A DNA stretch of 64,000 bases. Source: Sinohyriopsis cumingii. Taxonomy: Eukaryota > Mollusca > Bivalvia > Unionida > Unionidae. The number at the start of each line of letters is the position of its first letter. Position 1 is the stretch's first letter. The position numbers and the translations under genes are program-made. Shown in pieces: positions 1,086 to 38,394 of the stretch. Under the pieces are notes generated by a model that was not told the origin of the DNA, searched no databases, and saw only the letters and a program-made list of their open reading frames with translations. Location: the NCBI GenBank assembly GCA_028554795.2, contig CM068839.1, forward strand, positions 38,035,006 to 38,099,005, given 5' to 3'.

Positions 1086-1343
1086 AGCAGCAGAGGGGGC
1101 GAATCGGACATTTTGTCCAATCGTTATTTTGCTTAATTATTACTTTCTGCACTCAACGATCTAGTGTCGTCAGCGCCTGGTAAAAAAAAAACGACGACGT
1201 CGTTGGGGGATCGTCGCGTCGTCATTTGGTTTAATTAACACCTTCTGCGCGCCGATCCCCAGTGTCGTCAGCGTCCGGTAAGCACATCGACGACCGCGTC
1301 GATGTCATCGCCCCCTCTGCTGCTAAGTGGTTATTTACAATGA
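1086..1343 (+). repeat. Left terminal inverted repeat (258 bp)
   Basis: This is the reverse complement of 16576-16833, with one difference seen by eye (t at 1263 against c). It starts AGCAGCAGAGGGGGCGA, and the inverse of that 17-mer lies inside it at 1309-1325, so each terminal repeat is framed by its own inverted ends. Two diverged direct copies about 98 bp apart share AGTGTCGTCAGCG (1163 and 1261). The segment is rich in CpG, unlike the flanks. Confidence 0.92.
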
Positions 1344-1356
1344 AAATTATTTACAA

Positions 1357-2031
1357 CTAACCGAATATTTGGTCAAGTCCGATACGATATCGTGTCCGAG
1401 GATCATGTAAATTTATCGTTACAAATCCATGTGGGGTCGACTGAGCATGACTAAAAAAGTTTCGAAAACCATTAAAGTCCATGTCACCGCCACACCAAGT
1501 TTGCCAGATATTTCGTAGCGTGTGTGTATCAACGCCGTTGAATACAGCAAGAATATTGCAGTTATCTCTGATTACTTTTGGAATCTGAGTGTATCGTTGA
1601 GTGACATATATCACGTCAGTGTTTTTATGCCTGCCTCTGGAAAATATCCTAGCTGGGTTCTTTTGATTGTCTAACATAACATCATCGTACACGACTAGAT
1701 TGTTAACGTCGCCATCAATATCATCAATACCCGGTGCATCATTGATATCCGTAATAAACTCAATAACATTCTTTTTAGCGATCGCTGATGCATTCTCGTT
1801 GAAATCTTTCAACACCTCGTAGCATCGTTGATCATCTACGCTAGGAGCAACCAAATACAACTTATCCCACTTCATCCATCTCATTATTAAATTGAGTAAC
1901 AATTGCGTCTTGCCGGATCCAGATGGTCCGATGATAATCATCCGGATCGAGTTTGGTAACGCTGCAACATGCTTAACTGGTTCTCTTGTTTTAGTCGCCG
2001 AAAAATCAATTATATTCATATCTCTATACAT
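1357..2031 (-). CDS. A32-like genome-packaging ATPase
   Basis: This 224-aa P-loop ATPase is of the FtsK/HerA-like A32 type that pumps viral DNA into capsids. Walker A is GPSGSGKT (residues 35-42). Walker B is NLVVYDDV with the acidic pair at 116-117, and a YVTQRY stretch follows in the sensor region. The length is normal for Polinton/adintovirus ATPases. It ends 14 bp inside the left terminal repeat boundary and starts 5 bp from the divergent gene at 2037. Met5 (2019, MNIIDF) is an equally plausible start. No frame damage is seen. Confidence 0.87.
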   Translation of the reverse strand: MYRDMNIIDFSATKTREPVKHVAALPNSIRMIIIGPSGSGKTQLLLNLIMRWMKWDKLYLVAPSVDDQRCYEVLKDFNENASAIAKKNVIEFITDINDAPGIDDIDGDVNNLVVYDDVMLDNQKNPARIFSRGRHKNTDVIYVTQRYTQIPKVIRDNCNILAVFNGVDTHTLRNIWQTWCGGDMDFNGFRNFFSHAQSTPHGFVTINLHDPRTRYRIGLDQIFG

Positions 2032-2036
2032 AAATT

Positions 2037-2315
2037 ATGGATCTATATTGTGTGAAGTGTAGAGTGCGTACTGGCACAAATGATATGACAACCGTTACGA
2101 CAAGAAATAACAGATCGGCGCTTACTGGTAAGTGTGTACAATGCGGTACAAAGAAATTTAGATTTATTTCTATTAGACCCGGAGATGTTTTTAAAAAAAG
2201 CGAGGAGGTGACATCGCAGCCAAATTGGCAAAACTCCCCGGAACACCGTGGGCAAAGTATCCAGGAGAAAAACACCTCCCAGGATATAACTACTGTGGCC
2301 CCGGAACACGATTAG
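2037..2315 (+). CDS. Zinc-ribbon protein (DUF5679-like), probably the front of a zinc-ribbon/PLA2 protein
   Basis: The ORF is 92 aa. Residues 1-55 form a Cys4 ribbon: YCVKC at the start and a CVQCGTK pair about 30 residues on. Ribbons of this kind are common in Polinton-like and other large DNA viruses. After an A7 run (2193-2199) the reading becomes low-complexity and polar. The -1 frame, by contrast, opens there and leads straight into the PLA2 domain. The last 35-40 residues are therefore probably out-of-frame tail. The function of the ribbon is unknown; nucleic-acid or protein binding is a guess. Confidence 0.7.
   Translation: MDLYCVKCRVRTGTNDMTTVTTRNNRSALTGKCVQCGTKKFRFISIRPGDVFKKSEEVTSQPNWQNSPEHRGQSIQEKNTSQDITTVAPEHD
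2190..2200 (+). other. Frameshift point: T-run and A7 between zinc ribbon and PLA2
   Basis: Frame 0 reads gtt ttt aaa aaa agc. The PLA2 frame is -1 relative to it and opens just after a TAA at 2192-2194. Either one A was lost from the run (mutation or assembly error) or a -1 slip occurs here. The run does not form a canonical X XXY YYZ heptamer in frame 0, which favours an indel. Confidence 0.6.
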
Positions 2316-2575
2316 ATATTAGACTCGATGATCAAAATCAGCCCAAACCCGGTGAGTATCCAATAAACGCTATCGATAAGGCGTGTCATGCTCATGATGT
2401 TGCTTACAAAAGTAGCGATCTGCAACAGCGTCATATCGCGGATGTAAAATTAATTCACGCGCTAAATGCTATTCCTGATAAATCCGTCAAAGAAAAATTG
2501 GCCTCATGGTTGGTAAAATCGGCTATGAAAGGTAAATTAATGATTGGAAGCGGAGCTTCTGGCGCTGGTAATTGA
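2225..2575 (+). CDS. Parvovirus-VP1-type phospholipase A2 domain
   Basis: This region carries the calcium-binding loop signature (YNYCGPGTRLD) and the catalytic His-Asp motif (CHAHDVAY) of the PLA2 domain known from parvovirus VP1 and reported in adintovirus-like elements. There it is thought to help virions escape endosomes. The frame is open from 2195, but no ATG lies before the active site and 2225 is a TTG. Expression as a fusion with the zinc ribbon is thus more likely than independent translation. The domain ends at a TGA lying inside the promoter-like motif of the integrase gene. Confidence 0.75.
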   Translation: MAKLPGTPWAKYPGEKHLPGYNYCGPGTRLDIRLDDQNQPKPGEYPINAIDKACHAHDVAYKSSDLQQRHIADVKLIHALNAIPDKSVKEKLASWLVKSAMKGKLMIGSGASGAGN

Positions 2576-2579
2576 AAAC
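2570..2579 (+). promoter_or_regulatory. AATTGAAAAC motif before integrase
   Basis: The motif starts 31 bp before the integrase ATG (2601), contains the TGA stop of the PLA2 frame, and is followed by TTTATAATAA at 2587-2596. Confidence 0.55.
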
Positions 2580-2600
2580 GATAGCGTTTATAATAACAAC

Positions 2601-3545
2601 ATGGAATCCATCTATTATTCTCCGAGAGGATACTGGAAGGGGAAGGCCGCAATTGGTAAGCTTGCAAGCGCTGCAAAGGTAACAAAGGCCACTGCGGCTA
2701 ATTGGTTATCCAAACAGGCTATATGGCAAATCTATCTACCACCGCCTAAACAAATCAACTTCTCGCGCTTTGATGTCAGCGTACCTAATGAAGTTCATCA
2801 GGCTGATATACTATTTCTGCCGCATGACAACGGTTACAAATACGCGCTAACCGTAGTTGATGTTGCGAGTCGATACAAACAAGCGGAACCATTGAAAACA
2901 AAGTCAGCAACTGAAGTAGCCGATGCGTTTGAGCGGATTTATCGAAGAGGTCCTCTGCGCTGGCCAAATCTATTACAAGTTGATCCTGGTAGTGAATTTC
3001 GCGGCGCTGTTTTATCAACGCTGAAACATCATAGCGTCGCGATACGACGAGGTCATACTGCGCTACATCGTGATCAGGCAATTGTTGAACGATTCAATCG
3101 GACTCTCGCTGAACGGTTATTTGGATATCAATACGCGAAGGAATTCATCCAAGAAAAACGATCTCGTGAATGGGTTAAAAGGTTGCCAGGTGTAATTGCA
3201 GCGTTAAATAACGAGATTACCCGAGTAATCAACATGAAGCCCAGCGACGCGATTAAATACGAGTATATACCCGGAAAATTAAAAATAAATAGCGTTTCTA
3301 AGCCGATTCTTGGCGATGTCACTGTTAGATATCTATATGAACCAGGAGAGCTTGAAGGCGGTAAAAAAAGGGCTACCGATCCTATTTGGAGTGTTACCAC
3401 ACATAACATATCAACGATAACACGATCAACTGGTAGACCACCGATCTATAGACTGGATTCAATTGCTCCTCAGCGCGGATTTACACGCGAGCAACTACAA
3501 GTGATACCTAACGATACTCAATTACCCCCGCGTGGTCTTAACTAG
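2601..3545 (+). CDS. Retroviral-type (Polinton) integrase, DDE
   Basis: This 314-aa rve-family integrase joins element ends to target DNA. Catalytic acids by my numbering are D69 (HQADILF), D128 (QVDPGSEF) and E163 (IVERFNRT), with 34 residues between the last two. The C-terminal YEPGELEGG region is typical of the SH3/chromo-like tail of Polinton integrases. The start at 2601 is chosen because it follows the conserved upstream motif at standard spacing; the frame extends 19 codons further up through that motif. It converges on and overlaps the PolB gene by 8 bp. The 5-bp target duplication fits this enzyme class. No lesion is seen. Confidence 0.9.
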   Translation: MESIYYSPRGYWKGKAAIGKLASAAKVTKATAANWLSKQAIWQIYLPPPKQINFSRFDVSVPNEVHQADILFLPHDNGYKYALTVVDVASRYKQAEPLKTKSATEVADAFERIYRRGPLRWPNLLQVDPGSEFRGAVLSTLKHHSVAIRRGHTALHRDQAIVERFNRTLAERLFGYQYAKEFIQEKRSREWVKRLPGVIAALNNEITRVINMKPSDAIKYEYIPGKLKINSVSKPILGDVTVRYLYEPGELEGGKKRATDPIWSVTTHNISTITRSTGRPPIYRLDSIAPQRGFTREQLQVIPNDTQLPPRGLN

Positions 3546-6500
3546 CGCCGTTGCGTCTATTACACTCAAGACAGGTCAACCTCACATTGTTTTTGACATG
3601 ACCGAGACTGTTATCGATCCTATCCACGGTAAATTGGCGAGTGTCTTTATCCGAATAACGCCAACTCATTATACAATTGCAACTCGCGCAGTGATTATTC
3701 TGTTGTTGTCGTAGCGAGATTATTAATTCGGCATCAATATCAAAACGCCGCTGTTTTTTTTTATCCTGTTGGCGGTAACCCGAGAGTTTTCTATCAATGA
3801 CGCTTGCATCGATGGTGACTTTGTCGCCGGCTTCGTCGGTGGCTTCGTCAATAACAATTCTTCGAAGCTGATTTATCCTTCGTACTCTGGACACTGCAAG
3901 ATAGACTAGATTCGACCATTCGATGCGATTATCAACTATCCAAACAATTGTGTCCGTGATGGTTAGTCCCTGCGAGGAATGTATTGTTGTTGCGTATCCT
4001 AGCGTCCACGGGGATTTATCAGCACGTAGCGCGTCCTCGACGACGCTGATATCAACGAGCACGATATCATTCAGCACGAGAATTTGTTTTTCTGTCCGGC
4101 CTGGAATTTCAACTTCAATGTTCTGCCGCCGTGTGTCCGCGGGTCTATAACATAACGGCACTGGACGCGTTGGAAACTTTTCCTTATGCAACGTAAACAA
4201 CTTCCGCTGAAGTGTGTCTCTGACTATCTTTCTACTCGCTACAATCAAATCGTTTGGTCTCCATGTTTCCCAAAATTCATTTAACGGCGTTTCCGGAATC
4301 ACCTCGCGAATTATTTCACATTGAATTCTATCCGGCTGTAATCTGATTAATTTCTTAACCTCGCGCAGTTGTTCATCAAGTGCTCGGTAATCAGTATCGG
4401 TTTCTTCATAATAGTCCACAAAACCCCTTAACCAATCATGTGGACCCTCGCCGACAAATGGTGGTGGTTGGCCATGGTCCCCACACATGATTACCGCTGT
4501 ATTCGCGCGCAGCAACCACTCAAGAAACATTTGTAAAGTATCTAACGAAACAGTACATATCTCATCCCAGATGATAATGTCGGGAATAAATTTTTCACCC
4601 ATTCGATCAGGAGTCCACTCACCGCCGCTGTATCGAAAGAAGCTGTGATAAGTAACGGCGTCAACATTTCGTTGTTTTATCTCTCGCGCTAGTCTATGAG
4701 TCGGTGTAAGCACGATTATACTTGCCCGCGTTCGAAATAATTCAATTGCCCGAGTCGTCTTTCCTGACCCGCCACAGCCGCTTAAATAAACCGTCTTGTG
4801 TCTACAAATTGGATCAGAACACGATGGTGCATTAGACCATTCTGACAATTTATCACCGCGTAAGTAGTTGTTCTCAACGGTGACATCTGCTGACGGGGAA
4901 TAATCGCGTCGTATTTCATTTTTAATTCTCCATGTACCCCAACTCTCGTCCGGACTAGTAAACTCGGCTACGTTTCCCTTATACGCTACGTCAACATAAA
5001 ACGAATCAACGGCTACTCTAACCGCGGTATCGGGGAATCTATTTATCATCGAGAATAAATTGATAGCGGCATATCCCAGCATAGACGCCCTCAAATGTGG
5101 ATACGCCGGGCTGTCTCCATCGCTGTAGGTAACAACTGTACCCAACCTCGTTCCATTGGACAAGAAAGCTGTTTTGCAGTTCACGTATCTATTTTTTGCC
5201 ACTGTGTCCTTGATTACGAAATCATATTCTGCGTCATCTATAATCAGCCGTGAGCAATATCGTTTGTAGTCGTGGTTTTTTCCACCTTGTGTGAACTTAC
5301 CAATTATTCTTCTACCGAGATCTTTTGCCTCGCGGTTTCGTTGGTTAAATATCCTCCTGGACCATTCGATGATATATTCCTCGTCGGCATCAATGTTTTT
5401 TCTGGACTCGTCAATTATGCTATCTAGACACTCCGGTTCTGGTAACCAGACTTCAGTCTGTGCCCGGTATGATATAATCGCGTCACTGACAATCAACGAA
5501 ACTAGCATGCTACAATCAATCATATACCGTAGCAGCGCTATTGGCAGCCATCTCTTTTCAGCCATGTGTCTACCGATCCAAATATAGCAACAGCGATGGA
5601 GTCCTGCCGCGAATTCAAATGATACTATGCGAGCGAATCCGGTTAAATCAAAATCAGGCAGTGGTCCATTAATAGCAACACGAGTCATTTCATGACTGGG
5701 GTGTCCAAATCGTCTAAAGTACTCAGCGGCGGATCCATACCCGAGAAAACTCGCTGGATAACAGGCAACCATATCAACCGAGATCATAGCGTCGCGGTTG
5801 TATTCAGTGTTCCATAGTCCACCGTGATAGTATTCCAAACAACTGGATTGTACATCCGGTAGAAATTCCCTGCGCGTTGGTCTCCACGCATTTTTCCTTG
5901 CTGCAACATGAGCTACAACCGATGGAATCGTAAAACAATTTGTTAGCAGTTGTTCATCATGCTCCTCAAATTCTATGGCGGTTTTTTTCATCCTGTTGTG
6001 AAATGCTTCAGTGCGATATAATTCACCGTTTGGTCTTACAAACTGATCAAAGGTATCCGCATCGTTTTCAGCGCTGCGAAGTAACCACATTGATACAGGG
6101 TCGTTTTTACACAAGTAGGCAATAGCATCAAATAGTTTCCTCTCCGCGAGAAAACCGTCCTTGGAGAATTGTTCTCCCAGGAATTCTTCGGGTATATACT
6201 TTACTGTTCTATCCCGTGGAAATATTGTGATCACGGGCGTCCATGCGTGTTCGTTATGATCAATAATTTTGATTGGGGCTCCCTTCGATTTATACTTCGA
6301 TTCGTATAATACTTCACCGGTTATCGTTGTAACGGTTATTGGAAATCTCAGCGATGTTTCTAATCTCGCTATGTCGCTGATGGTTGCTCCACGCTCTTTT
6401 ACGGTTAGTTCCCACTGGTTGATTTTGCTACGTCGTAAATCAGTCAATTTGTTTCCTCGACATGCATTTGTAAAATGCTCTATTATTCGTTCTGCTACAC

Positions 6501-7017
6501 AATTTATCCCAGTTGACTGTTTCATCGGTTTCAGTTTTCCGATATCAGGTTTCTTATTTAACGGGTATATTCCATAAACAACTGCTGTTTCAGGATACGC
6601 TCGTTCATAGTATGGTTTGTCAATTCCGGTTAACAACCCCGGCTTGGAGTCGCGGCTGACAGTGACTGTTTTCTTGTCGCTGAGAACTGGTTCAAATTTA
6701 TCACGCATGATCCAATCGCCTGATTCCACCCGGACAATGAATTTTACTCTGAAGAAATACTTTTTACCGTCAAGTTGTGATATTATCATTGCTGCGCGGT
6801 TGTCGTTCATGGTAGCATCAACAACACCATCAATTCGAAATGTTGACCAACTATGAGATGCACCATCACGTTTGAATTCATTGATACAATCGCGTATTTT
6901 ATTCAACAGGGTTTTATCGTTTATTAACGCTTTTGGTGTGTCCTTGAGGACTCTATCGAGATTGAACTTAATATTTTTCCAGGGCTTAATTACTGCTAAT
7001 CTCTCAAACTCATCCAT
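3538..7017 (-). CDS. PolB DNA polymerase fused to SF1 helicase and HNH/zinc tail
   Basis: This is a 1159-aa protein. Residues 1-390 are unassigned and could hold a diverged exonuclease. The polymerase palm has motif A SVDMVACYP (413-421), a motif-B-like KDLGRRIIGKF (565-575) and motif C VAVDSFYVD (668-676), where the usual DTDS is reduced. A superfamily 1 helicase follows: Walker A SGCGGSGKTT (746-755), Walker B IIWDE (815-819), GDHGQ (846-850), TIHSSQG (1011-1017) and YLAVSRVRR (1039-1047). Residues 1110-1152 form a four-Cys HNH-like module (CASCN, VDRIDN, CLECNRRNG). It presumably replicates the element. Met at 7017 is preferred over the ORF start at 7065 because the first 16 residues would lie in the divergent promoter region. 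The fusion is unusual for a Polinton. Confidence 0.83.
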   Translation of the reverse strand: MDEFERLAVIKPWKNIKFNLDRVLKDTPKALINDKTLLNKIRDCINEFKRDGASHSWSTFRIDGVVDATMNDNRAAMIISQLDGKKYFFRVKFIVRVESGDWIMRDKFEPVLSDKKTVTVSRDSKPGLLTGIDKPYYERAYPETAVVYGIYPLNKKPDIGKLKPMKQSTGINCVAERIIEHFTNACRGNKLTDLRRSKINQWELTVKERGATISDIARLETSLRFPITVTTITGEVLYESKYKSKGAPIKIIDHNEHAWTPVITIFPRDRTVKYIPEEFLGEQFSKDGFLAERKLFDAIAYLCKNDPVSMWLLRSAENDADTFDQFVRPNGELYRTEAFHNRMKKTAIEFEEHDEQLLTNCFTIPSVVAHVAARKNAWRPTRREFLPDVQSSCLEYYHGGLWNTEYNRDAMISVDMVACYPASFLGYGSAAEYFRRFGHPSHEMTRVAINGPLPDFDLTGFARIVSFEFAAGLHRCCYIWIGRHMAEKRWLPIALLRYMIDCSMLVSLIVSDAIISYRAQTEVWLPEPECLDSIIDESRKNIDADEEYIIEWSRRIFNQRNREAKDLGRRIIGKFTQGGKNHDYKRYCSRLIIDDAEYDFVIKDTVAKNRYVNCKTAFLSNGTRLGTVVTYSDGDSPAYPHLRASMLGYAAINLFSMINRFPDTAVRVAVDSFYVDVAYKGNVAEFTSPDESWGTWRIKNEIRRDYSPSADVTVENNYLRGDKLSEWSNAPSCSDPICRHKTVYLSGCGGSGKTTRAIELFRTRASIIVLTPTHRLAREIKQRNVDAVTYHSFFRYSGGEWTPDRMGEKFIPDIIIWDEICTVSLDTLQMFLEWLLRANTAVIMCGDHGQPPPFVGEGPHDWLRGFVDYYEETDTDYRALDEQLREVKKLIRLQPDRIQCEIIREVIPETPLNEFWETWRPNDLIVASRKIVRDTLQRKLFTLHKEKFPTRPVPLCYRPADTRRQNIEVEIPGRTEKQILVLNDIVLVDISVVEDALRADKSPWTLGYATTIHSSQGLTITDTIVWIVDNRIEWSNLVYLAVSRVRRINQLRRIVIDEATDEAGDKVTIDASVIDRKLSGYRQQDKKKQRRFDIDAELIISLRQQQNNHCASCNCIMSWRYSDKDTRQFTVDRIDNSLGHVKNNVRLTCLECNRRNGAS

Positions 7018-7019
7018 AT

Positions 7020-7029: not shown

Positions 7030-7056
7030 AGTATTTAAATGAAAGAATATAGTATA

Positions 7057-7380
7057 ATGAATCACTGCAAATGGTTGATGATTGGGTCGACAACCCCGTG
7101 CAATAAATCATGTAGAGGTGAATTCTGCGGGTATCATTTACAAAGCGTTCGTAATGGTTCTCTTGGCCCCCTCCCGTGCTTGGTTTGCCACGTCGGTGTA
7201 AGAGGAAAATCACAGTTGTGTATCAATTGTGGCGGAAAGCGATACAGGGAACTAAAACGCTATTATGACAAGCGAATTAAAAACGCCGTCATCAACCCCA
7301 CCGCCGACTTCGTCATCAAAACCCCCCAAGACTACGTTGAAAGATTCATAATTAAACCAAATAATAAATTAGACAAGTAG
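7057..7380 (+). CDS. Cys-rich zinc-binding protein, unknown role
   Basis: The product is 107 aa. The N-terminal 60 residues carry paired Cys/His motifs (HCKW, PCNKSCRGEFCGYH, PCLVCH, CINCGGKR), consistent with two or three zinc sites. The C-terminal half is basic. An in-frame ATG at 7039 would add six residues; 7057 is preferred because the Cys motif begins directly after it. It is encoded between PolB and the HNH gene in the replication half. DNA binding or regulation is plausible but not shown. Confidence 0.65.
   Translation: MNHCKWLMIGSTTPCNKSCRGEFCGYHLQSVRNGSLGPLPCLVCHVGVRGKSQLCINCGGKRYRELKRYYDKRIKNAVINPTADFVIKTPQDYVERFIIKPNNKLDK
7367..7376 (+). promoter_or_regulatory. AATTAGACAA motif before HNH gene
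   Basis: It starts 27 bp before ATG 7394 and lies across the end of the Cys-rich gene; TATTATTATACAA follows. Confidence 0.4.
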
Positions 7381-7393
7381 TATTATTATACAA

Positions 7394-7924
7394 ATGGACC
7401 AAGAATTTCAGCCGCATCCCCTGCTCGTCAATTACGAGGCATCTCGCGACGGTATTGTTAGAAATCGTAGACTGAAGAAGCCGGTTGGATGGAAAAACAA
7501 TCACGGGTATTTAATGTTTACTGCTGGAGGGAAAAAATATCTCTGTCACAGAATCATCTATGAATGTTTCCACGGATTGATCAAAGATAGTCTCGTTATT
7601 GATCACATTGATTCTAATTATCAAAATAATAGACTGTGTAATCTGCAAGCCATCTCTCAGAGTGAAAATAGTAAAAAAGGCCAAACTGGTAAATACTCAA
7701 AGAAAGCAAAACCCGTAAAGTCATTTGATACAACAACTCACGAGGAAAAAATATTTCAGTCGATGAATGAGGCAGGAAAATATTTTGACATTTGTATCGC
7801 CTCAATACAATTTGTTGCAGAACGAATATATCAAACAGCGATCTCAAAAAAGACGGGTCATAGAATTCGATTTTCATATATAACATCAAAGGGAGATAAC
7901 TCGTTTTGTGATAGCGTCGCATGA
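7394..7924 (+). CDS. NUMOD4/HNH homing-endonuclease-like protein
   Basis: The protein is 176 aa. Residues 10-40 resemble a NUMOD4 start (YEASRDGIVRNRR). An HNH core follows with HRIIYECFHG, the VIDHIDSNYQNNR segment and LQAISQSEN, as in phage and giant-virus HNH homing nucleases. A NUMOD1-like KSFD...F.S.NEAGKYFDI stretch near 115-140 could be a DNA-reading helix. It may be a parasite of the element or a replication nuclease. No equivalent is seen in block 2, but that block lacks the whole replication half. Confidence 0.78.
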   Translation: MDQEFQPHPLLVNYEASRDGIVRNRRLKKPVGWKNNHGYLMFTAGGKKYLCHRIIYECFHGLIKDSLVIDHIDSNYQNNRLCNLQAISQSENSKKGQTGKYSKKAKPVKSFDTTTHEEKIFQSMNEAGKYFDICIASIQFVAERIYQTAISKKTGHRIRFSYITSKGDNSFCDSVA

Positions 7925-7930
7925 CAAGAG

Positions 7931-8351: not shown

Positions 8352-8684
8352 GTAGAGTTCCGCCCCGCCGTTTTATGTTTGTGCTGTCTTGTGCCGTCCC
8401 ATCATCCATCAATCATTTCATTATAAATATATTCATCCTTAATTAAGTACATGTAGTGATGTCCCCCAAGCATATCTTCTGGGCGGTCTACGATGACGTT
8501 TGTCACCCTAGGCCTCCCTCCCGGAGATGTATGCTTTGGGGTTCCAAGATGTGAATGTCCTTAATTAAGTATATGTATATGCCTGCAATCTGCCACAACA
8601 CTCGAGTGGAGATCTACGGCATTGTACTGTCCATACAAAAAACGGGGTCAAAAATGGCCCCAATAATTTTATTAAAATTTTTGA

Positions 8685-8694
8685 TATTAGAAAT
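8685..8694 (+). promoter_or_regulatory. TATTAGAAAT motif before the 126-aa gene
   Basis: It starts 29 bp before ATG 8714 and is followed by TTTTATAAGAATA. Confidence 0.4.
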
Positions 8695-8713
8695 AAGATG
8701 TTTTATAAGAATA

Positions 8714-9094: not shown

Positions 9095-9098
9095 AAAA
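9089..9098 (+). promoter_or_regulatory. AATTAGAAAA motif before the 313-aa gene
   Basis: It starts 30 bp before ATG 9119, contains the TAG stop of the 126-aa gene, and TTTACAATA precedes the ATG. Confidence 0.55.
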
Positions 9099-9118
9099 TT
9101 GCGGATCAATTTACAATA

Positions 9119-10060
9119 ATGGTAGGTGAATCACTTACTACTCGGCTAGCCAGAGAGCGGCTAGCAGCGCTTAAAAAGTTTATACCGTTACGAGACAGGG
9201 TGAGAGAGAAACTTCAAACGCGACAACAAATGCAAACCGATTTTACTGTTGGAAGCGAACAACTCTTTGCCCCGGTAACTAAAGCGACTAAGGATGTTAC
9301 AGCGGCAACTGTACCCGTTCTTGGTGCGCTTGAAAAGATAGCGGCAGAGACAAAACAAACAAAAAGGTCTTTAGAAACACTCCCTGCAAAAATAGCGGCT
9401 GCTACAACACGGAGGCCACCACCACTCGCTATAACCGAACCACAAGAACCTTATGTTACAATGGCCGACGAGGAAGAATTAGGTGCTACTGCGAAAGAAC
9501 CAGAAGAAGAAATACCCGAAGAAACACCCGAAGAAACATCGAAAGAAAAAAAGAAAGAGGGAAATATACCCCGTAATGTTCTTAAAAAGTCCGCAATAGA
9601 TCAAATTAGAGACATCGACGACGATGAAGAATTAGTTAATTTTGTTGCTACAACATCAACTAAGAGCATTCGAGATGAGTATATCAATGAAGGTTACAAG
9701 AAAAAAATAACCTCGACGGAGAACTGGGCAAGAATAGTGTATTTAGCGAGTAAACATAGAGAAGCATTACCACATCGTGGTGATCCCGATTACGATAAAT
9801 TCCTCGAGAAAGTTAAGAGTAGAACACCAAAAAAAGGAAAAGGATACCCTGTTGGTAAAGAATCCTACGGCGTTACCTGCCCTAATAGTGTTCTCAGTGA
9901 TATATCACGGCTGGAAGTACTAATTGGAGGAAAACGAGCCGGAAATAACTCTACGGAAATAATCAATGAGGCCGCTGATATTTGCAAGCGGTTATTTGCA
10001 GGCGGTATTATGGACATTAATGCATATCGAACGCTCATAGACGAACTCGTGGATGATTAA
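9119..10060 (+). CDS. 313-aa virion-cassette protein, unknown function
   Basis: A basic, helical N-terminus (TTRLARERLAALKKF) is followed by an Ala/Thr-rich middle and an acidic Glu/Pro linker (about residues 112-146). A conserved C-terminal domain follows (DISRLEVLIGGK, EIINEAADICKRLF, LIDELVDD). The block 2 counterpart (45357-46284) keeps the two ends best. The modular N-end, flexible acidic linker and helical C-end would suit a scaffold or core protein, but no family is recognised. Confidence 0.72.
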   Translation: MVGESLTTRLARERLAALKKFIPLRDRVREKLQTRQQMQTDFTVGSEQLFAPVTKATKDVTAATVPVLGALEKIAAETKQTKRSLETLPAKIAAATTRRPPPLAITEPQEPYVTMADEEELGATAKEPEEEIPEETPEETSKEKKKEGNIPRNVLKKSAIDQIRDIDDDEELVNFVATTSTKSIRDEYINEGYKKKITSTENWARIVYLASKHREALPHRGDPDYDKFLEKVKSRTPKKGKGYPVGKESYGVTCPNSVLSDISRLEVLIGGKRAGNNSTEIINEAADICKRLFAGGIMDINAYRTLIDELVDD

Positions 10061-10068: not shown

Positions 10069-10086
10069 CTGGTGTTTTTAATAAGG

Positions 10087-10566
10087 ATGATCATACACTA
10101 CAACCATGATAAACCAGTACTCGTCTACTTGGTAAACTCGCGATTGCCTGTTTACCGCGCGTACTATGGAGATGGTCTCGGTAGCACCATTGCGGGGTTA
10201 TTTACAAGAATGGCTCCAAAAGTAGCGCCGTTAGCCAAACAATTAGGAATGAAGGCTATTGATGTTATTCGTGATAAGGGTATTAGTGCCATTGGAGATG
10301 TTGCCGGAAGGGCGTTTTCAGCCGCGCGGGACAAACTAATGTCATTGGTGAAATTCAGGAGAAAAAAACAGAAACCACCGGTAATGCCATCAACGACAGT
10401 GATGCCTGCAAATGTCAGTAAAGTAATAAATAACGCCGTGGAAGAAAAATTAGAGTCGTTGGCGACGACTTCGCCATCCGCCGATGCGGCAACCAACGCG
10501 CTCATGAACGCGATAGCGGGGAGTGGTTTAAATTCAAAGAATTTACGACGAAAAAATCGCAATTGA
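10087..10566 (+). CDS. Minor virion protein with GDGLG motif (pVI-like candidate)
   Basis: The product is 159 aa. The block 2 homologue (44878-45336) starts at the same Met and shares NSRLPxxRAxYGDGLG, a following hydrophobic/amphipathic stretch (AGLFTRMAPKVAPLAKQL) and a C-terminal KVINxAVxxKL helix. The central region is basic and proline-bearing (RRKKQKPP). Amphipathic, basic minor capsid proteins of this size occur in adenovirus-related lineages (pVI/pX types), so a capsid cement or membrane-active role is plausible. Start 10087 is preferred over a GTG at 10072. Confidence 0.68.
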   Translation: MIIHYNHDKPVLVYLVNSRLPVYRAYYGDGLGSTIAGLFTRMAPKVAPLAKQLGMKAIDVIRDKGISAIGDVAGRAFSAARDKLMSLVKFRRKKQKPPVMPSTTVMPANVSKVINNAVEEKLESLATTSPSADAATNALMNAIAGSGLNSKNLRRKNRN

Positions 10567-10570
10567 AAAC
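10561..10570 (+). promoter_or_regulatory. AATTGAAAAC motif before the capsid gene
   Basis: It starts 31 bp before the conserved capsid ATG at 10592 and contains the TGA of the previous gene. Confidence 0.55.
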
Positions 10571-10591
10571 ATCAACATGATAAATAATAGA

Positions 10592-12016
10592 ATGTTTGCG
10601 CGTACCGCTGATCCCGCGTTTGATATGGACGCCCCAGTACGCAGGGATGATTCTGTCCGTGATTATCAATATTATTCTTATTATGCAGCGCAACCTGACC
10701 TACGATCGCGAATTGAACTTCAAGTCCAAGATACCAGTAAATATTTTTTGCCGTGTGAAGCGTTTATCGAAATCGAGGGAGAACTCGTGACAAATGCCGC
10801 CGATAATGCACCATACGCAGATGACCATCGTGTTCGAGTTGGCTTCGTCAACAACGGTATCATGGCGTTATTTGAGAGCGCCAGATATCTTATTGACGGG
10901 CGAGAAATTGAATCAATAGAACGCGAGGTTGATGTTGCAACAACGATAATTGGGTTGGCGAGATACTCGGATGATTATACAAGATCGGCGGGCCCATCTA
11001 TGATGTTTTCGAAGGACACCACCAATAACGCTGACCATCTTCAGTACGTTAACGTGCTGACACCACGAAATACCGCAGCTGACCAGGATGAAGCAGCTAA
11101 CCCAGACCGCAGAGCAAAACCAGGTGACAATTTCACTGTTATAAAAAGCACCAACAATGATTTCAATCTAGGATTCGCAACACGAGTAGGAATGTTGCAA
11201 GGACCACGCCGAAAGTTTTCATGCGCGATTCCACTCCATCACATATTTGGATTCTGCAGAAATGTCAGAAAAGTTATCTATGGGGCTAAGCATACAATCG
11301 CGCTGACGCGAAGGGGCGATGATAACAATGCAATATGGCGTGCTGCTGGTGTCGCCGCCGGTAAAGTCATTTTAACTAAAATGGCATTGTGGATGCCGGT
11401 GCTGACTCCATCAGTTACCACGGAAGCACGATTGTTAGCATTTATGGAACAGGGAGGGAAATCGCTGTTGAGTTGGCTAGCGGTAACAACTGATGCTAAA
11501 GAGGATAACGTCGCCGATACGTTTACATGGCACCTGGCGTCAAAACAGGGTGTTTCAGCCCCGCGTCATATATTCATAGCGCTGCAGAATAGGGAACGAT
11601 TGGGCAGTCAAGAACGCAGCCATATGATATTTGATCGATTAGGAGTCATGGAGGTTTCGCTGAGAATAAACGGGCAACAGGAACCATCCGAGGATATACA
11701 GCTTAATTACGGCGACAACCATATCGCACGTGTGTATCATCGATTGCTGTCGTATATGGGTCGTGATCAAAACGTCGACACTGGTTTGCAAATATCACAA
11801 CTTGATTTTAAAAACCTGTATCCGATTTATTATTTTTCGCTGGAACATCTTGATTTAACGAGACAATCCGTCGTTGATATACACTTCCGAGCTCGTATAG
11901 CCCCGGGTGGTGTTAATTATAGAGCGGTTGCTGTCATTCTCAGCGATAAATCAATGCTGTTGGAAGGCGTTGGTGGACGAATGAGAATCGTTGATGCACC
12001 AGTGGAAAACATGTAA
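10592..12016 (+). CDS. Candidate major capsid protein (double jelly-roll type)
   Basis: This 474-aa, beta-rich protein is the longest conserved virion gene apart from the repetitive fibre. Conserved blocks shared with block 2 (43422-44845) include MFxxxxDPAFxxD at the start, YFLPxEAFIEIEGELV, VGFVNNGIMALF, FGFCRNVRKVI.GAKHT and a C-terminal VVDIHFRAR segment. Size, position before the core protein and protease, and two apparent beta domains fit a Polinton/adintovirus hexon-like MCP; this is inference without a structure. The start at 10592 (Met6 of the longer frame) is chosen because block 2 begins there and the upstream motif spacing fits. Confidence 0.65.
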   Translation: MFARTADPAFDMDAPVRRDDSVRDYQYYSYYAAQPDLRSRIELQVQDTSKYFLPCEAFIEIEGELVTNAADNAPYADDHRVRVGFVNNGIMALFESARYLIDGREIESIEREVDVATTIIGLARYSDDYTRSAGPSMMFSKDTTNNADHLQYVNVLTPRNTAADQDEAANPDRRAKPGDNFTVIKSTNNDFNLGFATRVGMLQGPRRKFSCAIPLHHIFGFCRNVRKVIYGAKHTIALTRRGDDNNAIWRAAGVAAGKVILTKMALWMPVLTPSVTTEARLLAFMEQGGKSLLSWLAVTTDAKEDNVADTFTWHLASKQGVSAPRHIFIALQNRERLGSQERSHMIFDRLGVMEVSLRINGQQEPSEDIQLNYGDNHIARVYHRLLSYMGRDQNVDTGLQISQLDFKNLYPIYYFSLEHLDLTRQSVVDIHFRARIAPGGVNYRAVAVILSDKSMLLEGVGGRMRIVDAPVENM

Positions 12017-12024
12017 TTGAAAAC
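12015..12024 (+). promoter_or_regulatory. AATTGAAAAC motif before the core-like gene
   Basis: It starts 30 bp before ATG 12045, with the capsid stop TAA overlapping its first bases; TTTACAATAAA abuts the ATG. Confidence 0.55.
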
Positions 12025-12044
12025 ACAAACGCGTTTACAATAAA

Positions 12045-12521
12045 ATGTCGTATAGTGTCGTCAGTGTAGAGTTGACTGATGGTCAAGTCAAGAAATTACG
12101 ATCAAAGTCGGCTAAACAATGCGGAACCACAATAACGCTGAAGCCGTCACAGATGGCGGGTGGTAATCATAAGATATCGTTGACGGCGCGTCAAATAAAA
12201 CATTTCAATGATGCGATGAAGAATAAAAAGGGTGTTCAAATAGATTTTTCCGCCGCAGCAATTAAAAACATGGAAAAGACCGGTGGGATATTTCCGCTGT
12301 TAGCTGCGATTCCAGCGTTGATTGCCGCGGCCGCACCAGCAGTGGCTAAGGCGGCGGCGTTGGGGGCCGTTGGTACCGCGGCGGGAATGGCATTAAAGAA
12401 GGCAACCGGGAAAGGCTACAAAAAAAAACGACCCGTGGCCGGAAAGGGTCTAAGACTACCGGGAACCCCGTATTCATGGTATTCGGGAAAGGGTCTAAGA
12501 CTACCGGGAACCGTTTATTGA
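12045..12521 (+). CDS. Membrane-active/core-like protein with hydrophobic helix
   Basis: The product is 158 aa. A basic beta-like N-terminal domain is followed by a strongly hydrophobic Ala/Ile stretch (about residues 80-122, GGIFPLLAAIPALIAAAAP onward) and a Lys/Arg-rich tail. The tail contains two 15-residue repeats (GKGLRLPGT), from a 45-bp tandem duplication at 12441-12530. The plan resembles the melittin-like or core (pX/mu) proteins proposed for adintoviruses. Block 2 holds a homologue (42975-43373) with the same hydrophobic block. Its last 46 bp overlap the protease gene in another frame. Confidence 0.7.
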   Translation: MSYSVVSVELTDGQVKKLRSKSAKQCGTTITLKPSQMAGGNHKISLTARQIKHFNDAMKNKKGVQIDFSAAAIKNMEKTGGIFPLLAAIPALIAAAAPAVAKAAALGAVGTAAGMALKKATGKGYKKKRPVAGKGLRLPGTPYSWYSGKGLRLPGTVY

Positions 12522-12988
12522 CTCGGGAGTCAATGACTCCTGAGTCTATGACTCCAATGTCTAATTTTGATTTAATAGACGCCGCAAACGCGCTAGCGAT
12601 AAAAAACTTCAGAGGTGTTTTTATGAGGGATCAATTACCGGCGGCACCAAGGAATATTGAAACCGGCATAATTAACCTCGATGGGTCCTCCGGAGCGGGG
12701 ACTCATTGGGTTGCATACGCGATCGATCCGCGTGCGATCGTCTATTTTGATTCATACGGGTTAGCTCCGCCGAAAGAGTTCATGCGGTATATCCGGGCGT
12801 GTTCAGCCCCGGCGTGTTCAGCCCGGGTTTTTTATTCCACGCTGCCAACACAGCAGTTAAGTGACCCACCGATATGCGGCCGTGAGGTATTGAACGTACT
12901 CGCGGCGATTTCATCATCGCGAAAACCACCTCATGTGGTTGTAAACGAATACACTAGTGGGGTCGTAGAGGCCCGGCGGGTTAATTAG
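12476..12988 (+). CDS. Adenain-like cysteine protease
   Basis: The 170-aa protein belongs to the C5/Ulp1-type protease family, which matures virion proteins. Proposed catalytic residues are H77 (GTHWVAYA), D92 (YFDSYG) and C134 (PPICGREVLNVL); Gln126-127 lie where the oxyanion Gln is expected. Its ATG is placed identically in block 2, inside the SWY codons of the upstream gene, so the overlap is conserved. The upstream gene is in another frame, so reinitiation, leaky scanning or its own promoter is required. A 15-bp tandem duplication (ACSAP, 12797-12828) is absent from block 2. This gene identifies the element as adenovirus/Polinton lineage. Confidence 0.87.
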   Translation: MVFGKGSKTTGNRLLTRESMTPESMTPMSNFDLIDAANALAIKNFRGVFMRDQLPAAPRNIETGIINLDGSSGAGTHWVAYAIDPRAIVYFDSYGLAPPKEFMRYIRACSAPACSARVFYSTLPTQQLSDPPICGREVLNVLAAISSSRKPPHVVVNEYTSGVVEARRVN

Positions 12989-12992
12989 AAAC
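12983..12992 (+). promoter_or_regulatory. AATTAGAAAC motif before the fibre gene
   Basis: It starts 32 bp before ATG 13015 and contains the protease TAG; TTTCTACAATAA follows. Confidence 0.5.
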
Positions 12993-13014
12993 ATCGTTTT
13001 TTTCTACAATAACG

Positions 13015-14694
13015 ATGATTGATATTTGGGGACGACCGGTTTCGGCGCTGAAAGAATCCACGGAAACGGCCGCCGCCGACATAAAAAAACTAATTGAGGA
13101 TGAAATCGCTGATATGTTAAATTTAATCAGTGTTGACCCAGGCGAAATAGTTGTATTTCAAGACCGCCAGGGTAAATTGAAATCCGGTAATGTGTCACTG
13201 AATGATGTTTTAACACGACAGCGTGATGCCGCCGAGGACACTATCGCGTTATATACCGGCGACGGACGACTCAAACCGGGTGAACATATATCGGCGGTAA
13301 CATTAGTCAAAGACGGTTTTATAAGGTTGGATAGATCGGTGACCGAACTTGACGCGCAGGTGAAAAAATCTGTCACCGAGGTGAAAAAATCTATCACCGA
13401 TATACAACTCACTACCGCTAGTTTTTTCGGGACCCCGGCGGTAACCGAACCAAATCTTGCAGCAATAATGGGTGCTATTTTGGATTTTGCAACGCTGTCG
13501 GGCCAATTTGTCTCGTTACGGAAAAATGTTAACAGGATCGATGACAACTTTGATAAATTCTTTGGTAAAAAAAATACCAGACCGGATGAGATTACAACAA
13601 CTATAAATGATATCACTGCGTATGGACAGGAAATAAAAACAATCAAACTTGATGTTGCAGAGAACAGAAATGGTGTAGTAGTACATGAGCGGGAAATAGA
13701 AATAATCGGCGCTAATGTTGCAAGGATCATAAATAATGTAGACTCGCATGGACGGAAAATAGAAACAATCAAAACTGATGTTACAACGATCATAAATAAT
13801 ATGGACACGCATACACAAGAAATAGGAATAATCAAAACTGATATTGAAGCGAACAAAAAGAGTGTAGACGCGCATACACAGGAAATAGGAACAATCAAAA
13901 CTGATGTTGAAGCGAACAAAAAGGGTGTGGACGCGCATACACAGGAAATAGGAACAATCAAAACCGATATTGAAGCGAACAAAAAAAATGTAGACGCGTA
14001 TTGGCGGGGAATAGGATTAATCAAAACTGATGTTGCAGCGAACAAAAAAGGTATAGACGTACATACATATGAAATAGGAACAATCAAACTTGATGTTGCA
14101 GCGAACAAAAAAAGTATGACCGAGAATACACGGGAAATAGAAACAATCAAAACTAATGTTGCAACGAACAAGAATAATATAGACGCGAATTTGCGTAGAA
14201 TAGAAATAATCAAAACTGATGTTGAAGCGATTAAAGACGGACTACCGAGAATAACAGAGCAACTCGAAACTAATATTGAAGCGAACAAAAAAAATGTAGA
14301 CGCGTATGGAGGGGAAATAAAAACAATCAAAACTGATGTTGAAGCGATTAAGGACAAACTACCTAGAATGACAGAGCAACTCGAAAAAATGAAAACACCT
14401 CATGGGATCATCGGCAGTGGCGTATACACGGTTCAATACGGATCATTCGATTGGACTCCTACGCGTAATGCAATAGATGTCACCGCAATTGTTAAGGGCA
14501 TTTATCGATTGACATTGATTTCGGCGATGCAGTTCAGTATATCATCGCCGAGTTCATCCGGGTTTAACAATACAATATCAACAATCATCGACAAGGATAC
14601 AATCGAACGGTTTATAATTAAAGCCGTTGATAGCAGTCTATTTAGGGCAAACATCACATGGTATGTGGAATTTGTAGCGAATCTAAGTAATTAA
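13015..14694 (+). CDS. Fibre-like protein with 21-residue coiled-coil repeats
   Basis: The protein is 559 aa. The N-terminal 170 residues (IDIWGRPVS, ISVDPGEIVVFQDRQGKL) are conserved with block 2 and should anchor to the capsid. Residues about 200-460 are repeats of a 21-residue unit (TQEIGTIKTDVEANKKGVDAH type), exactly three heptads, predicting a long trimeric coiled coil. The last 95 residues form a beta-rich head, also matched in block 2 (IVKGIYRLTLISA). The anchor-shaft-head order is that of adenovirus or phage fibres, so receptor binding is the likely role. The long minus-strand frame inside it is a shadow of the repeat. Confidence 0.72.
   Translation: MIDIWGRPVSALKESTETAAADIKKLIEDEIADMLNLISVDPGEIVVFQDRQGKLKSGNVSLNDVLTRQRDAAEDTIALYTGDGRLKPGEHISAVTLVKDGFIRLDRSVTELDAQVKKSVTEVKKSITDIQLTTASFFGTPAVTEPNLAAIMGAILDFATLSGQFVSLRKNVNRIDDNFDKFFGKKNTRPDEITTTINDITAYGQEIKTIKLDVAENRNGVVVHEREIEIIGANVARIINNVDSHGRKIETIKTDVTTIINNMDTHTQEIGIIKTDIEANKKSVDAHTQEIGTIKTDVEANKKGVDAHTQEIGTIKTDIEANKKNVDAYWRGIGLIKTDVAANKKGIDVHTYEIGTIKLDVAANKKSMTENTREIETIKTNVATNKNNIDANLRRIEIIKTDVEAIKDGLPRITEQLETNIEANKKNVDAYGGEIKTIKTDVEAIKDKLPRMTEQLEKMKTPHGIIGSGVYTVQYGSFDWTPTRNAIDVTAIVKGIYRLTLISAMQFSISSPSSSGFNNTISTIIDKDTIERFIIKAVDSSLFRANITWYVEFVANLSN
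13620..14390 (+). repeat. 63-bp repeats coding the fibre shaft
   Basis: About eleven diverged in-frame copies of a 63-bp unit (aaataggaacaatcaaaact core) are present. Units near 13830-13990 are nearly identical, which suggests recent expansion. Confidence 0.8.
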
Positions 14695-14698
14695 AAAC
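14689..14698 (+). promoter_or_regulatory. AATTAAAAAC motif before the membrane-protein gene
   Basis: It starts 31 bp before ATG 14720 and overlaps the fibre TAA; TTTTAAAATAAAA follows. Confidence 0.5.
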
Positions 14699-14719
14699 AC
14701 TAGCTCTTTTAAAATAAAA

Positions 14720-15256
14720 ATGACCACCAAGGAAATTGAATCAGAGGTATCACCGACGTCACATCAATATCGATTCGATACCGCAAAAGAATTCTCCGCG
14801 AACTTGAAAACGCTTTCCGAACAATACCGTGTAAAAATAAAAAAATACCGTCGTAAAATAACCACCATCGACGCGGTCGTGTACTCGGTGTCGGGTATAG
14901 TAGCTGGCGCCGGTGTTATTTTATCCACGGTGACCACGATAACCCCGATCGCTGTTCCAATCGCTGTCTCCGCAATGACAACAGTTGCTGGAGTTGCCAA
15001 CGCAATCACTAGGAAGATATCATCGTGTTTTCAGAAAAAACTCAACGAGTATACAGTAAAACATCAAATAGTATCCGACGCATACTCGAAATTATCCGGG
15101 TTGATCTCGTTATCGATTGATAATTTGTTCGTATCCGATGTTGAATTCTCCACGATGGTCCAGTTGTATAGCTCCGCGATGTCAAAAATCGAGGATTTTC
15201 AACTGGAAGCCGAAACCACCTGGTTGTTGAAATTAGACACTAAAGACAACAAATAA
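14720..15256 (+). CDS. Two-helix membrane protein, unknown function
   Basis: The product is 178 aa. A basic segment (KIKKYRRK, about residue 40) precedes two hydrophobic stretches (about residues 50-72 and 75-95, rich in Val/Ala/Thr). A cytosolic-looking helical tail follows. Block 2 keeps the same plan (40960-41459, frameshifted). A virion membrane or host-membrane-perturbing protein is plausible; no family is recognised. It is separated from the penton-like gene by only 5 bp. Confidence 0.7.
   Translation: MTTKEIESEVSPTSHQYRFDTAKEFSANLKTLSEQYRVKIKKYRRKITTIDAVVYSVSGIVAGAGVILSTVTTITPIAVPIAVSAMTTVAGVANAITRKISSCFQKKLNEYTVKHQIVSDAYSKLSGLISLSIDNLFVSDVEFSTMVQLYSSAMSKIEDFQLEAETTWLLKLDTKDNK
15231..15240 (+). 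promoter_or_regulatory. AATTAGACAC motif before the penton-like gene
   Basis: It lies inside the coding end of the membrane-protein gene, 31 bp before ATG 15262, keeping the standard spacing although there is no intergenic room. Confidence 0.45.
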
Positions 15257-15261
15257 TAATA

Positions 15262-16584
15262 ATGTCGCTGAACCCCGAAGGGTTTCAATTACTTCAGCGG
15301 ATCGCGGAGAACACCACTCCGGTACAAACAAATATGATATCAATAACGTCAACGAAACCCGAATTCAGTGTGAACTTCCCATCACCGGTTCCAGTAAAGG
15401 AAATAGCGCTGGCAAAATTGCGAGTATATCACAGTTGGCCTAATATCCGAGCGGACGCATTTAACGGACAACAACCTAATAACTCGCTGGTTTTTGCACG
15501 GACAAATAAACCCGATGGGACCCCAAACTGGGAGGAGGTTACAATACCAACTGGGTCATACCAAATAGAGCAAATCAATAAAGAATTTCAACGCAGGATA
15601 AAATCGATCACAGGAAAGGAATCAAAAATCGCTATTACGGTTCATGAACCGACGTTATCGTCGACGATTGAAATAAGCACACCGGGGTATATGGTTGATA
15701 TTTATAACAGTTCAATAAGAACCATACTAGGATGGCCTGAGAATCCACCTCATGAAAGTCCGCCGGAATCTTACACGAATGCGCGATCGTATCATGAGAT
15801 TAATCCCAGTTATCGAGATAATTTGTCTATTATGAAAAACACGTTATTACTCAGTCAGTTTGCATTTCAAAACAGGAATACCATGCAATGGTATTTTTTG
15901 TATGAGGACACTCCTGAATCACACGTCCAGCTCGCAGTTAGTTTAGATGATATCATTAATACGTTTGCTGAGATTAATCGTATTTGCCAATCACAACTAG
16001 AACAACTACGGAAAACAAAAGCACAAAAACACATCGAGGTGTTAAATCAACTTATATCAGACATGGAATATATTAATAAACGAATCGTCGGGATAATATC
16101 TGCTAACAGCGATGATAATAAGCAAAAATTCCTAACCGAGTATAATATCACAGAAGCCGATTTACCCGATTTTAGGTTTCCAGAATACAACGCGCCAGAA
16201 CTAAGAAAGTCTCTTAATGATTTTTTCGCCCCATCAACTATCCTCAGACACGATAACGGAGATGGTGGTAGGCATATTGCTCCATACAACGTAAATATCG
16301 CATCGGTGATAGCGATCAATCTAGTGTGTGATGTTATCGAAGGGAGTTATCAGGTGGATACCAAGCAATCAAATCAAGCTCAACAGGGGTATATCCTTTA
16401 TTCGTTTTCACCAACAGCCCCTCCGGGATTTTTAATCGTTGAGAGTCCGATTAATCCGGTCTATATGCGATGCCATGATCGGTTTTTAACGAGAATTAAT
16501 TTTAAACTCACCGATCAGTCAAATAACCTAATTGATCTACAGGAGGAGGAGTTAGTGATCACTCTGTTTGTAAGATCATTGTAA
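15262..16584 (+). CDS. Penton-like / minor capsid protein
   Basis: The protein is 440 aa. A conserved N-terminal block (MISITSTKPEFSVNF, VPVKEIALAKLRVYHSWPNI, IPTGSYQIEQIN) and a C-terminal block (INLVCDVIEGSYQV, PPGFLIVESPINPVYMRCH, RINFKLTDQSNNLIDL) flank a variable middle. Both blocks recur in block 2 (39512-40959). The two beta-rich blocks and partnership with a hexon-like capsid suggest the penton or a capsid-vertex protein, but I cannot exclude another spike-associated role. The stop lies within the right terminal repeat. Confidence 0.62.
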   Translation: MSLNPEGFQLLQRIAENTTPVQTNMISITSTKPEFSVNFPSPVPVKEIALAKLRVYHSWPNIRADAFNGQQPNNSLVFARTNKPDGTPNWEEVTIPTGSYQIEQINKEFQRRIKSITGKESKIAITVHEPTLSSTIEISTPGYMVDIYNSSIRTILGWPENPPHESPPESYTNARSYHEINPSYRDNLSIMKNTLLLSQFAFQNRNTMQWYFLYEDTPESHVQLAVSLDDIINTFAEINRICQSQLEQLRKTKAQKHIEVLNQLISDMEYINKRIVGIISANSDDNKQKFLTEYNITEADLPDFRFPEYNAPELRKSLNDFFAPSTILRHDNGDGGRHIAPYNVNIASVIAINLVCDVIEGSYQVDTKQSNQAQQGYILYSFSPTAPPGFLIVESPINPVYMRCHDRFLTRINFKLTDQSNNLIDLQEEELVITLFVRSL

Positions 16585-16833
16585 ATAACCACTTAGCAGC
16601 AGAGGGGGCGATGACATCGACGCGGTCGTCGATGTGCTTACCGGACGCTGACGACGCTGGGGATCGGCGCGCAGAAGGTGTTAATTAAACCAAATGACGA
16701 CGCGACGATCCCCCAACGACGTCGTCGTTTTTTTTTTACCAGGCGCTGACGACACTAGATCGTTGAGTGCAGAAAGTAATAATTAAGCAAAATAACGATT
16801 GGACAAAATGTCCGATTCGCCCCCTCTGCTGCT
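16576..16833 (-). repeat. Right terminal inverted repeat (258 bp)
   Basis: This is the partner of 1086-1343. Its inner boundary contains the last codons and stop of the penton-like gene. Inner (16597-16613) and outer (16817-16833) ends carry the 17-mer AGCAGCAGAGGGGGCGA in opposite senses. Confidence 0.92.

Positions 16834-38390: not shown

Positions 38391-38394
<4 letters not shown>

What the first reader, a model, noticed from the sequence alone, without database searches (positions are those of the whole stretch)
1086..16833. Complete, apparently recent 15.7-kb virus-like integrating element with its own packaging, capsid, fibre and replication genes
Inverted repeats of 258 bp with a single seen mismatch, a clean 5-bp duplication and almost all genes open mean this could still be mobile or produce particles. 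The gene set is Polinton/adintovirus-like, but the polymerase is not the usual one. It may represent a distinct lineage.
Basis: partly seen in the sequence, partly recalled or inferred. Interest (0 to 1): 0.9.

Follow-up and report, generated by a model that had tools for sequence, protein, structure and literature searches.

The report
Mollusc virus-like element with Tlr1-type replicase
A largely intact, recently inserted 15.7-kb virus-like element sits in what is probably a freshwater-mussel genome; it has a double-jelly-roll capsid set but seems to copy itself with a helicase-polymerase type described mainly from single-celled eukaryotes, so it looks like a separate branch of polinton-like viruses in animals.

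The parts
1081..1085 (.). left target-site duplication CATTC
1086..1343 (+). left terminal inverted repeat, 258 bp; its first 239 nt (1086-1324) form a foldback with 17-bp perfectly inverted tips
   Evidence: DNA fold z -6.55, 0 of 200 shuffles fold as well; tip copies at 1086, 1309, 16595, 16818
1357..2034 (-). A32/FtsK-like genome-packaging ATPase, 224 aa from first ATG
   Evidence: PF04665 5.9e-12; PHROG terminase large subunit 8.3e-10; ATG
2037..2575 (+). zinc-ribbon-like start (ATG 2037) followed in another frame by a PLA2-like domain ORF (2195-2575): gene split by a frame change
   Evidence: PF08398 1.6e-12; frames; zinc-ribbon reading is by eye
2544..3545 (+). retroviral-type (rve) integrase, 314 aa from ATG 2601
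   Evidence: PF00665 6e-9; IS481 transposase model 4.1e-17, below its cut-off; ATG
3538..7017 (-). replicase, 1159 aa: N-terminal region with invariant C173 and H254 and near-invariant H257 (candidate vOTU), PolB-like palm motifs, SF1 helicase, C-terminal HNH
7039..7380 (+). small Cys-rich, probably zinc-binding protein beside the replicase
   Evidence: ORF, sequence; Cys pattern by eye; only weak Pfam hits
7373..7924 (+). free-standing HNH (homing-type) endonuclease
   Evidence: HNH_3 4.1e-12, NUMOD1 0.04
8555..9094 (+). protein of unknown function; homologue at 38390-38749
   Evidence: 34% over 120 aa, E 2e-19
9095..10060 (+). late protein of unknown function
   Evidence: homologue in decayed copy, 64% over 74 aa and 44% over 55 aa
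10057..10566 (+). small late protein next to MCP; a like segment lies ahead of the capsid part in the Potamilus protein P0023 (by eye)
   Evidence: 48% over 149 aa to decayed copy
10532..12016 (+). [quoted passage not shown]
12021..12521 (+). small late protein with hydrophobic stretch and Lys-rich tail (by eye), unknown function
   Evidence: 68% over 144 aa to decayed copy
12350..12988 (+). adenain/Ulp1-type cysteine protease candidate (His, Asp, Cys pattern by eye)
   Evidence: PF00770 0.0091, below cut-off; 60% over 181 aa to decayed copy
12985..14694 (+). fibre-like protein with in-frame 63-bp (21-aa) coiled-coil-type repeats
   Evidence: repeat families; coiled-coil-type Pfam hits, all below cut-off
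14687..15256 (+). late protein with hydrophobic stretch (by eye), unknown
   Evidence: 35% over 127 aa to decayed copy
15244..16584 (+). candidate penton / minor capsid protein (440 aa)
   Evidence: inferred from position and appearance only; 59%, 42% and 64% to decayed copy in three stretches
16576..16833 (-). right terminal inverted repeat
16834..16838 (.). right target-site duplication CATTC
16833..17306 (-). LINE endonuclease ORF interrupted by the element (continues from 1085 down to 1, minus strand)
   Evidence: PF03372 3.1e-9
38390..46525 (-). decayed relative: late cassette in the same order (46284 to 39515), one 143-bp TIR-like foldback (46383-46525), and an ORF-8555 homologue (38390-38749) on the + strand

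Best explanation
This is a recently integrated polinton-like virus (double-jelly-roll capsid, Preplasmiviricota type) in a mollusc genome, most likely a freshwater mussel. It carries a Tlr1-type replicase instead of the usual exonuclease-bearing polinton polymerase. Likely cycle: (1) the linear dsDNA genome with inverted repeats is inserted by the rve integrase with a 5-bp staggered cut (insertion product shown; enzyme inferred). (2) The palm-helicase protein copies it, probably protein-primed, with the helicase opening the strand ahead (inferred from architecture and literature). (3) The ATPase packages it into a capsid of the double-jelly-roll protein plus penton, matured by the protease (capsid fold supported by a model, the rest inferred). 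(4) The fibre attaches to a new host cell and the PLA2 protein would help entry (inferred); in this copy the PLA2 gene is split, so this copy may be unable to complete that step.
Against: The palm is motif-based only: PF03175 matched 0 of 17 replicases at E up to 10, the model there has low confidence, and the fold comparison tested only residues 727-1058. Penton and protease rest on position and a sub-threshold hit. Structural neighbours do not favour animal polintons: the best BFVD hit of the MCP is an ascovirus, and the one adintovirus protein is rank 11. Host is inferred from relatives. PLA2 gene is split. dS of 1.2-2.3 is near saturation, so the ratios are rough. No related locus was confirmed in the IMG/VR and GTDB scans.
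Confidence: 0.76

Rival explanations
1. It is an ordinary animal polinton/Maverick/adintovirus whose polymerase merely looks odd.
For: rve integrase, packaging ATPase, DJR capsid, ends beginning AG and a PLA2 domain fit; the protease candidate fits weakly.
Against: The replicase is a helicase fusion with 55 related proteins found, and 0 of the 17 checked match the polinton polymerase Pfam model, whereas two ORFs of a decayed conventional polymerase in the same window do. TSD is 5 bp, not the 6 bp reported for vertebrate Mavericks (PMC8097293, passages).
Confidence: 0.15
2. The window or its relatives come from a protist or parasite living in molluscs, so the element is an ordinary protist polinton-like virus.
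For: Tlr1-type replicases are described from a ciliate element, PLVs and transpovirons (PMC11071308 section 10; PMC12721341 passages). PMC10120064 (passages) warns of the reverse mix-up between animal hosts and their parasites.
Against: MCP relatives on a 164.8-Mb contig of Sinanodonta woodiana and a 1.77-Mb contig of Potamilus streckersoni; replicase relatives on 340-967 kb contigs of Elysia crispata; the window holds a LINE ORF, a BIR-domain ORF and many microsatellites, which is weak support.
Confidence: 0.08
3. It is a fixed, dead relic or a co-opted locus (for example antiviral defence) rather than a copy of a virus lineage still spreading. This can be true of this copy even if the best explanation holds for its origin.
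For: PLA2 gene split; a decayed relative lies about 22 kb away. In one lake study contigs with animal-polinton MCPs were enriched in the microbial, not the virus-size, fraction (PMC7805220, passages).
Against: One TIR mismatch in 258 and open core genes; at 2e-9 per site per year one mismatch means about 1 My (0.02-5.4 My; the rate is assumed). Co-option was not tested.
Confidence: 0.3

Closest known systems
Tlr1 element of Tetrahymena thermophila
   Same: rve integrase, packaging ATPase, capsid proteins, and a replicase with PolB palm and SF1 helicase (PMC11071308 introduction passage and section 10; PMC4642659 passages)
   Different: Tlr1 replicase carries GIY-YIG, here HNH; ciliate host there, probable mollusc here
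Polinton-like viruses and transpovirons with Tlr1-like helicases (pPolB-S1H)
   Same: same domain order, motif C lacking first Asp, C-terminal HNH reported in some (PMC11071308 section 10)
   Different: PLVs mostly lack the rve integrase (same paper, introduction passage); no animal host of such a replicase in the passages I read
Animal polintons / Mavericks / adintoviruses
   Same: integrase, ATPase, DJR capsid, inverted repeats beginning AG
   Different: they carry a full protein-primed PolB; vertebrate Mavericks have 6-bp TSDs (PMC8097293 passages); here 5 bp and a helicase fusion
Chimeric meldviruses and adomaviruses of PMC11071296
   Same: adintovirus-type virion genes joined to another replication gene (Meld19810: primase-SF2 helicase and tyrosine recombinase; a Tegillarca clam adomavirus: RepE1) (passages)
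   Different: other replicases (SF2 or SF3 helicase), no PolB-SF1 fusion in the passages I read
OmPLV of Oxyrrhis marina
   Same: PolB and SF1 helicase in one protein
   Different: opposite order (helicase first) with exonuclease kept; tyrosine recombinase, no rve integrase found (PMC12721341 passages)

Membership tests
Tlr1-type polinton-like virus (pPolB-S1H) | SF1 helicase in the C-terminal part of a large multidomain replicase | tested here: met
   Pfam, PHROG, fold; AAA_19 and AAA_30 in 17 of 17
Tlr1-type polinton-like virus (pPolB-S1H) | PolB-type palm domain before the helicase | tested here: inconclusive
   motifs kept in 17 of 17, assigned by eye; no Pfam PolB hit in 17; low model confidence and palm not tested by fold
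Tlr1-type polinton-like virus (pPolB-S1H) | motif C lacks the first Asp | tested here: met
   A-(V/I/T)-D in 17 of 17, if the motif is assigned rightly; feature as in PMC11071308 section 10
Tlr1-type polinton-like virus (pPolB-S1H) | C-terminal HNH or GIY-YIG nuclease | tested here: met
   PHROG endonuclease VII 1.4e-10 and HNH models; Pfam HNH in 8 of 17 members, weak, best 0.033
Tlr1-type polinton-like virus (pPolB-S1H) | vOTU protease domain before the palm | tested here: inconclusive
   Cys173 and His254 in 17 of 17, His257 in 16 of 17; model weak there and not searched alone
Tlr1-type polinton-like virus (pPolB-S1H) | terminal-protein-like domain upstream | not tested
   only the helicase part (727-1058) was really tested by fold
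Tlr1-type polinton-like virus (pPolB-S1H) | DJR major capsid protein | tested here: met
Tlr1-type polinton-like virus (pPolB-S1H) | MCP inside a named PLV group by sequence | not testable with these tools
   no named reference MCP sequences reachable; the profile search returned the same 20 proteins, from a capped list of 7998 candidates
Polinton / Maverick / adintovirus | rve integrase | tested here: met
   PF00665 6e-9
Polinton / Maverick / adintovirus | replicase is a stand-alone polinton-type PolB recognised by PF03175 | tested here: not met
   0 of 17 family members match PF03175 at E up to 10; the protein is a helicase fusion. A missing profile hit does not prove that no exonuclease remnant exists
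Polinton / Maverick / adintovirus | 6-bp target-site duplication (as in vertebrate Mavericks) | tested here: not met
   5 bp CATTC
Polinton / Maverick / adintovirus | minor capsid/penton and adenovirus-type protease | tested here: inconclusive
   protease PF00770 0.0091, below cut-off; penton by position only

The most novel reading that the evidence does not exclude
Molluscs host a living, still transmitting family of integrating viruses in which a polinton/adintovirus-like capsid set works with a Tlr1-type helicase-polymerase. Replication modules were swapped on a shared capsid chassis in animal hosts, and released particles account for some of the near relatives (78-83% identity) on short unnamed contigs.
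Probability: 0.35. Interest if true: 0.8.

Novelty: new variant of a known kind. Interest (0 to 1): 0.6.

Why it matters
In the passages I read, helicase-fused PolB replicases of the Tlr1 type are described from a ciliate element, other PLVs and transpovirons, and animal polintons with the full polinton polymerase; other replicase-capsid chimeras in animal data are reported (PMC11071296). A near-intact copy in a probable mollusc, with an integrase and beside a decayed relative, makes the order of polymerase change and host switch testable. It also gives a young insertion that can be checked for polymorphism, expression and particles in a multicellular host.

Tried and rejected
Tried without result: scans of viral contigs with the MCP profile, the replicase profile, one conventional-polymerase piece and the integrase, and of genome contigs with the replicase profile: no relative confirmed. 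tblastn in the phage collection: only helicase-domain matches in 5 phages and no MCP match. Sequence search of solved structures with the MCP profile gave one nanobody hit at E 0.38, taken as chance; integrase hits were at E 0.12 or worse, most of them retroviral integrases. The profile search with the MCP alignment added no protein. PMC5499653, msad274 and PMC8502044 are not held.

Considered and rejected or left open: misassembly or contamination at the insertion (the flanks make one LINE ORF); that the decayed cassette at 39.5-46.3 kb and the conventional polymerase at 23.8-27.8 kb are one element (no matching second end found; not excluded); the role of the 143-bp unit at 46383-46525 (open).

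The best BFVD hit of the replicase, H6WBE3 (1100 columns), has no name in the tables; I did not use my recollection of what it is. TvV-S1, a cultured PLV, appears at rank 48. dN/dS was computed for 6 of the 9 genes that matched the decayed copy (ORF 8555, fibre and ORF 14687 were not given).

Mended since: foldback 239 nt instead of 240; 'metagenome' replaced by 'unnamed contigs' for the relatives; eleven papers instead of ten; palm set to inconclusive; results against my reading added (BFVD ranking, chimeras of PMC11071296, lake fractions of PMC7805220). Confidence went from 0.78 to 0.76 and the protist rival from 0.07 to 0.08 for these reasons.
Full report
What is there. The element runs from 1086 to 16833. 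Its ends are inverted repeats of 258 bp with one mismatch at 1263, flanked on both sides by CATTC. When one CATTC copy and the element are left out, the flanks read as one open 517-aa frame from LINE endonuclease into reverse transcriptase, up to the window edge. Pfam finds the endonuclease family on the right-hand piece (PF03372 3.1e-9); the reverse-transcriptase reading of the left piece is by eye. This is direct evidence of a precise insertion with a 5-bp duplication. Fifteen ORFs cover 14,434 of 15,748 bases; 15 stop-to-stop ORFs reach 150 aa against a mean of 0.27 in 100 shuffles.

Age. One mismatch in 258 bp fits about 1 My at 2e-9 substitutions per site per year, with a range of 0.02-5.4 My from counting error alone. 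The rate is assumed, not measured.

Ends. Each repeat is itself a foldback of 239 nt with 17-bp inverted tips; the 16-bp tip occurs at 1086 and, inverted, at 1309, and likewise at 16595 and 16818. As single-stranded DNA the repeat folds better than all 200 shuffles (z -6.55).

Relatives. The capsid search gave 20 proteins among 7998 scored candidates (a capped list): 2 bear an organism name, Sinanodonta woodiana (68% over 60% of the query) and Potamilus streckersoni (49% over 44%). The replicase search gave 55 among 7683: 4 Elysia crispata, 1 Thiodiazotropha MAG, 50 without organism name. The nearest are unnamed (MCP 83%, replicase 78-79%); whether they are host DNA, virions or genome assemblies is not known. 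In a quick tree of 52 rows (window plus 51 of 55; 4 under 700 aa dropped) the window protein groups with P0024-P0027 (SH-aLRT 100); the program warns of long branches there and of unlike letter make-up. The host is therefore probably a mollusc, likely a unionid mussel, by inference.

A decayed relative. tblastn of the element's proteins against the rest of the window finds the late cassette in the same order on the minus strand from 46284 to 39515: MCP 57% over 479 aa with stops, protease 60%, ORF 12021 68%, penton 59%, 42% and 64% in three stretches. dN/dS was 0.10-0.40 in 7 of 10 aligned stretches of 6 genes and not computable in 3 because dS was saturated; dS in the others was 1.2-2.3, so the values are rough. 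They point to selection on these proteins along the two lineages. In the rest of the window no integrase or replicase relative was found at E below 0.5, and the only ATPase match is at 0.44.

What is broken. The PLA2 domain ORF has no ATG ahead of the domain; a zinc-ribbon-like start sits upstream in another frame. Real mutation, sequencing error and programmed frameshift cannot be told apart here.

Literature. I searched the paper library eight times and saw passages of eleven papers, plus the outline and one section of one of them. None of those passages describes a Tlr1-type replicase in an animal element. Against a claim of broad novelty: PMC11071296 (passages) reports other chimeras of adintovirus virion genes with foreign replication genes, one in a clam dataset; PMC12220804 (passages) mentions PLV-like elements with insect poxviruses and separate histories of replication and capsid genes. 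PMC10120064 (passages) says metazoan MCPs fall in one main cluster apart from cnidarian ones; PMC10294476 (passages) says Mavericks occur in all mollusc genomes it analysed. PMC5499653, the paper most likely to bear on this, was not held.

Verdict. A real, recent, nearly intact integrated virus-like element. By replicase it works like, and matches the features that could be decided for, the Tlr1-type polinton-like viruses; palm, vOTU and MCP placement stay open. By integrase and capsid set it resembles animal polintons, but it fails two polinton tests (replicase type, TSD length). I call it a new variant of a known kind.

Noticed in passing
window 38390-46525: Decayed relative of the element's late cassette, with its ORF-8555 homologue inverted on the far side of the penton end: a different gene layout from the intact element.
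   Followed up: partly
window 46383-46525: 143-bp foldback with tips AGCAGCAGGGAGGGC, like a short version of the element's terminal repeat, lying about 100 bp from the decayed cassette's start.
   Followed up: partly
window 23755-28275: Decayed conventional polinton-type polymerase (PF03175 hits in two ORFs) in several frames, followed by an ORF with a BIR (inhibitor-of-apoptosis) domain.
   Followed up: partly
window 38874-39386: Two small tandem ORFs on the minus strand that look by eye like diverged copies of each other, next to the decayed penton gene and short ACTTCCTTGAT repeats.
   Followed up: no
window 31858-32007: A further fragment (about 50 aa, 39%) similar to the ORF-9095 protein, a possible third trace of this family.
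   Followed up: no
window 17343-18827: 494-aa open ORF with Cys-rich knuckles (by eye) next to the LINE endonuclease, probably ORF1 of the LINE that the element interrupts.
   Followed up: no
window 22919-22964: Histone 3' stem-loop match just above threshold (35.2 bits against 34), with an inverted partner at 21812-21868.
   Followed up: no
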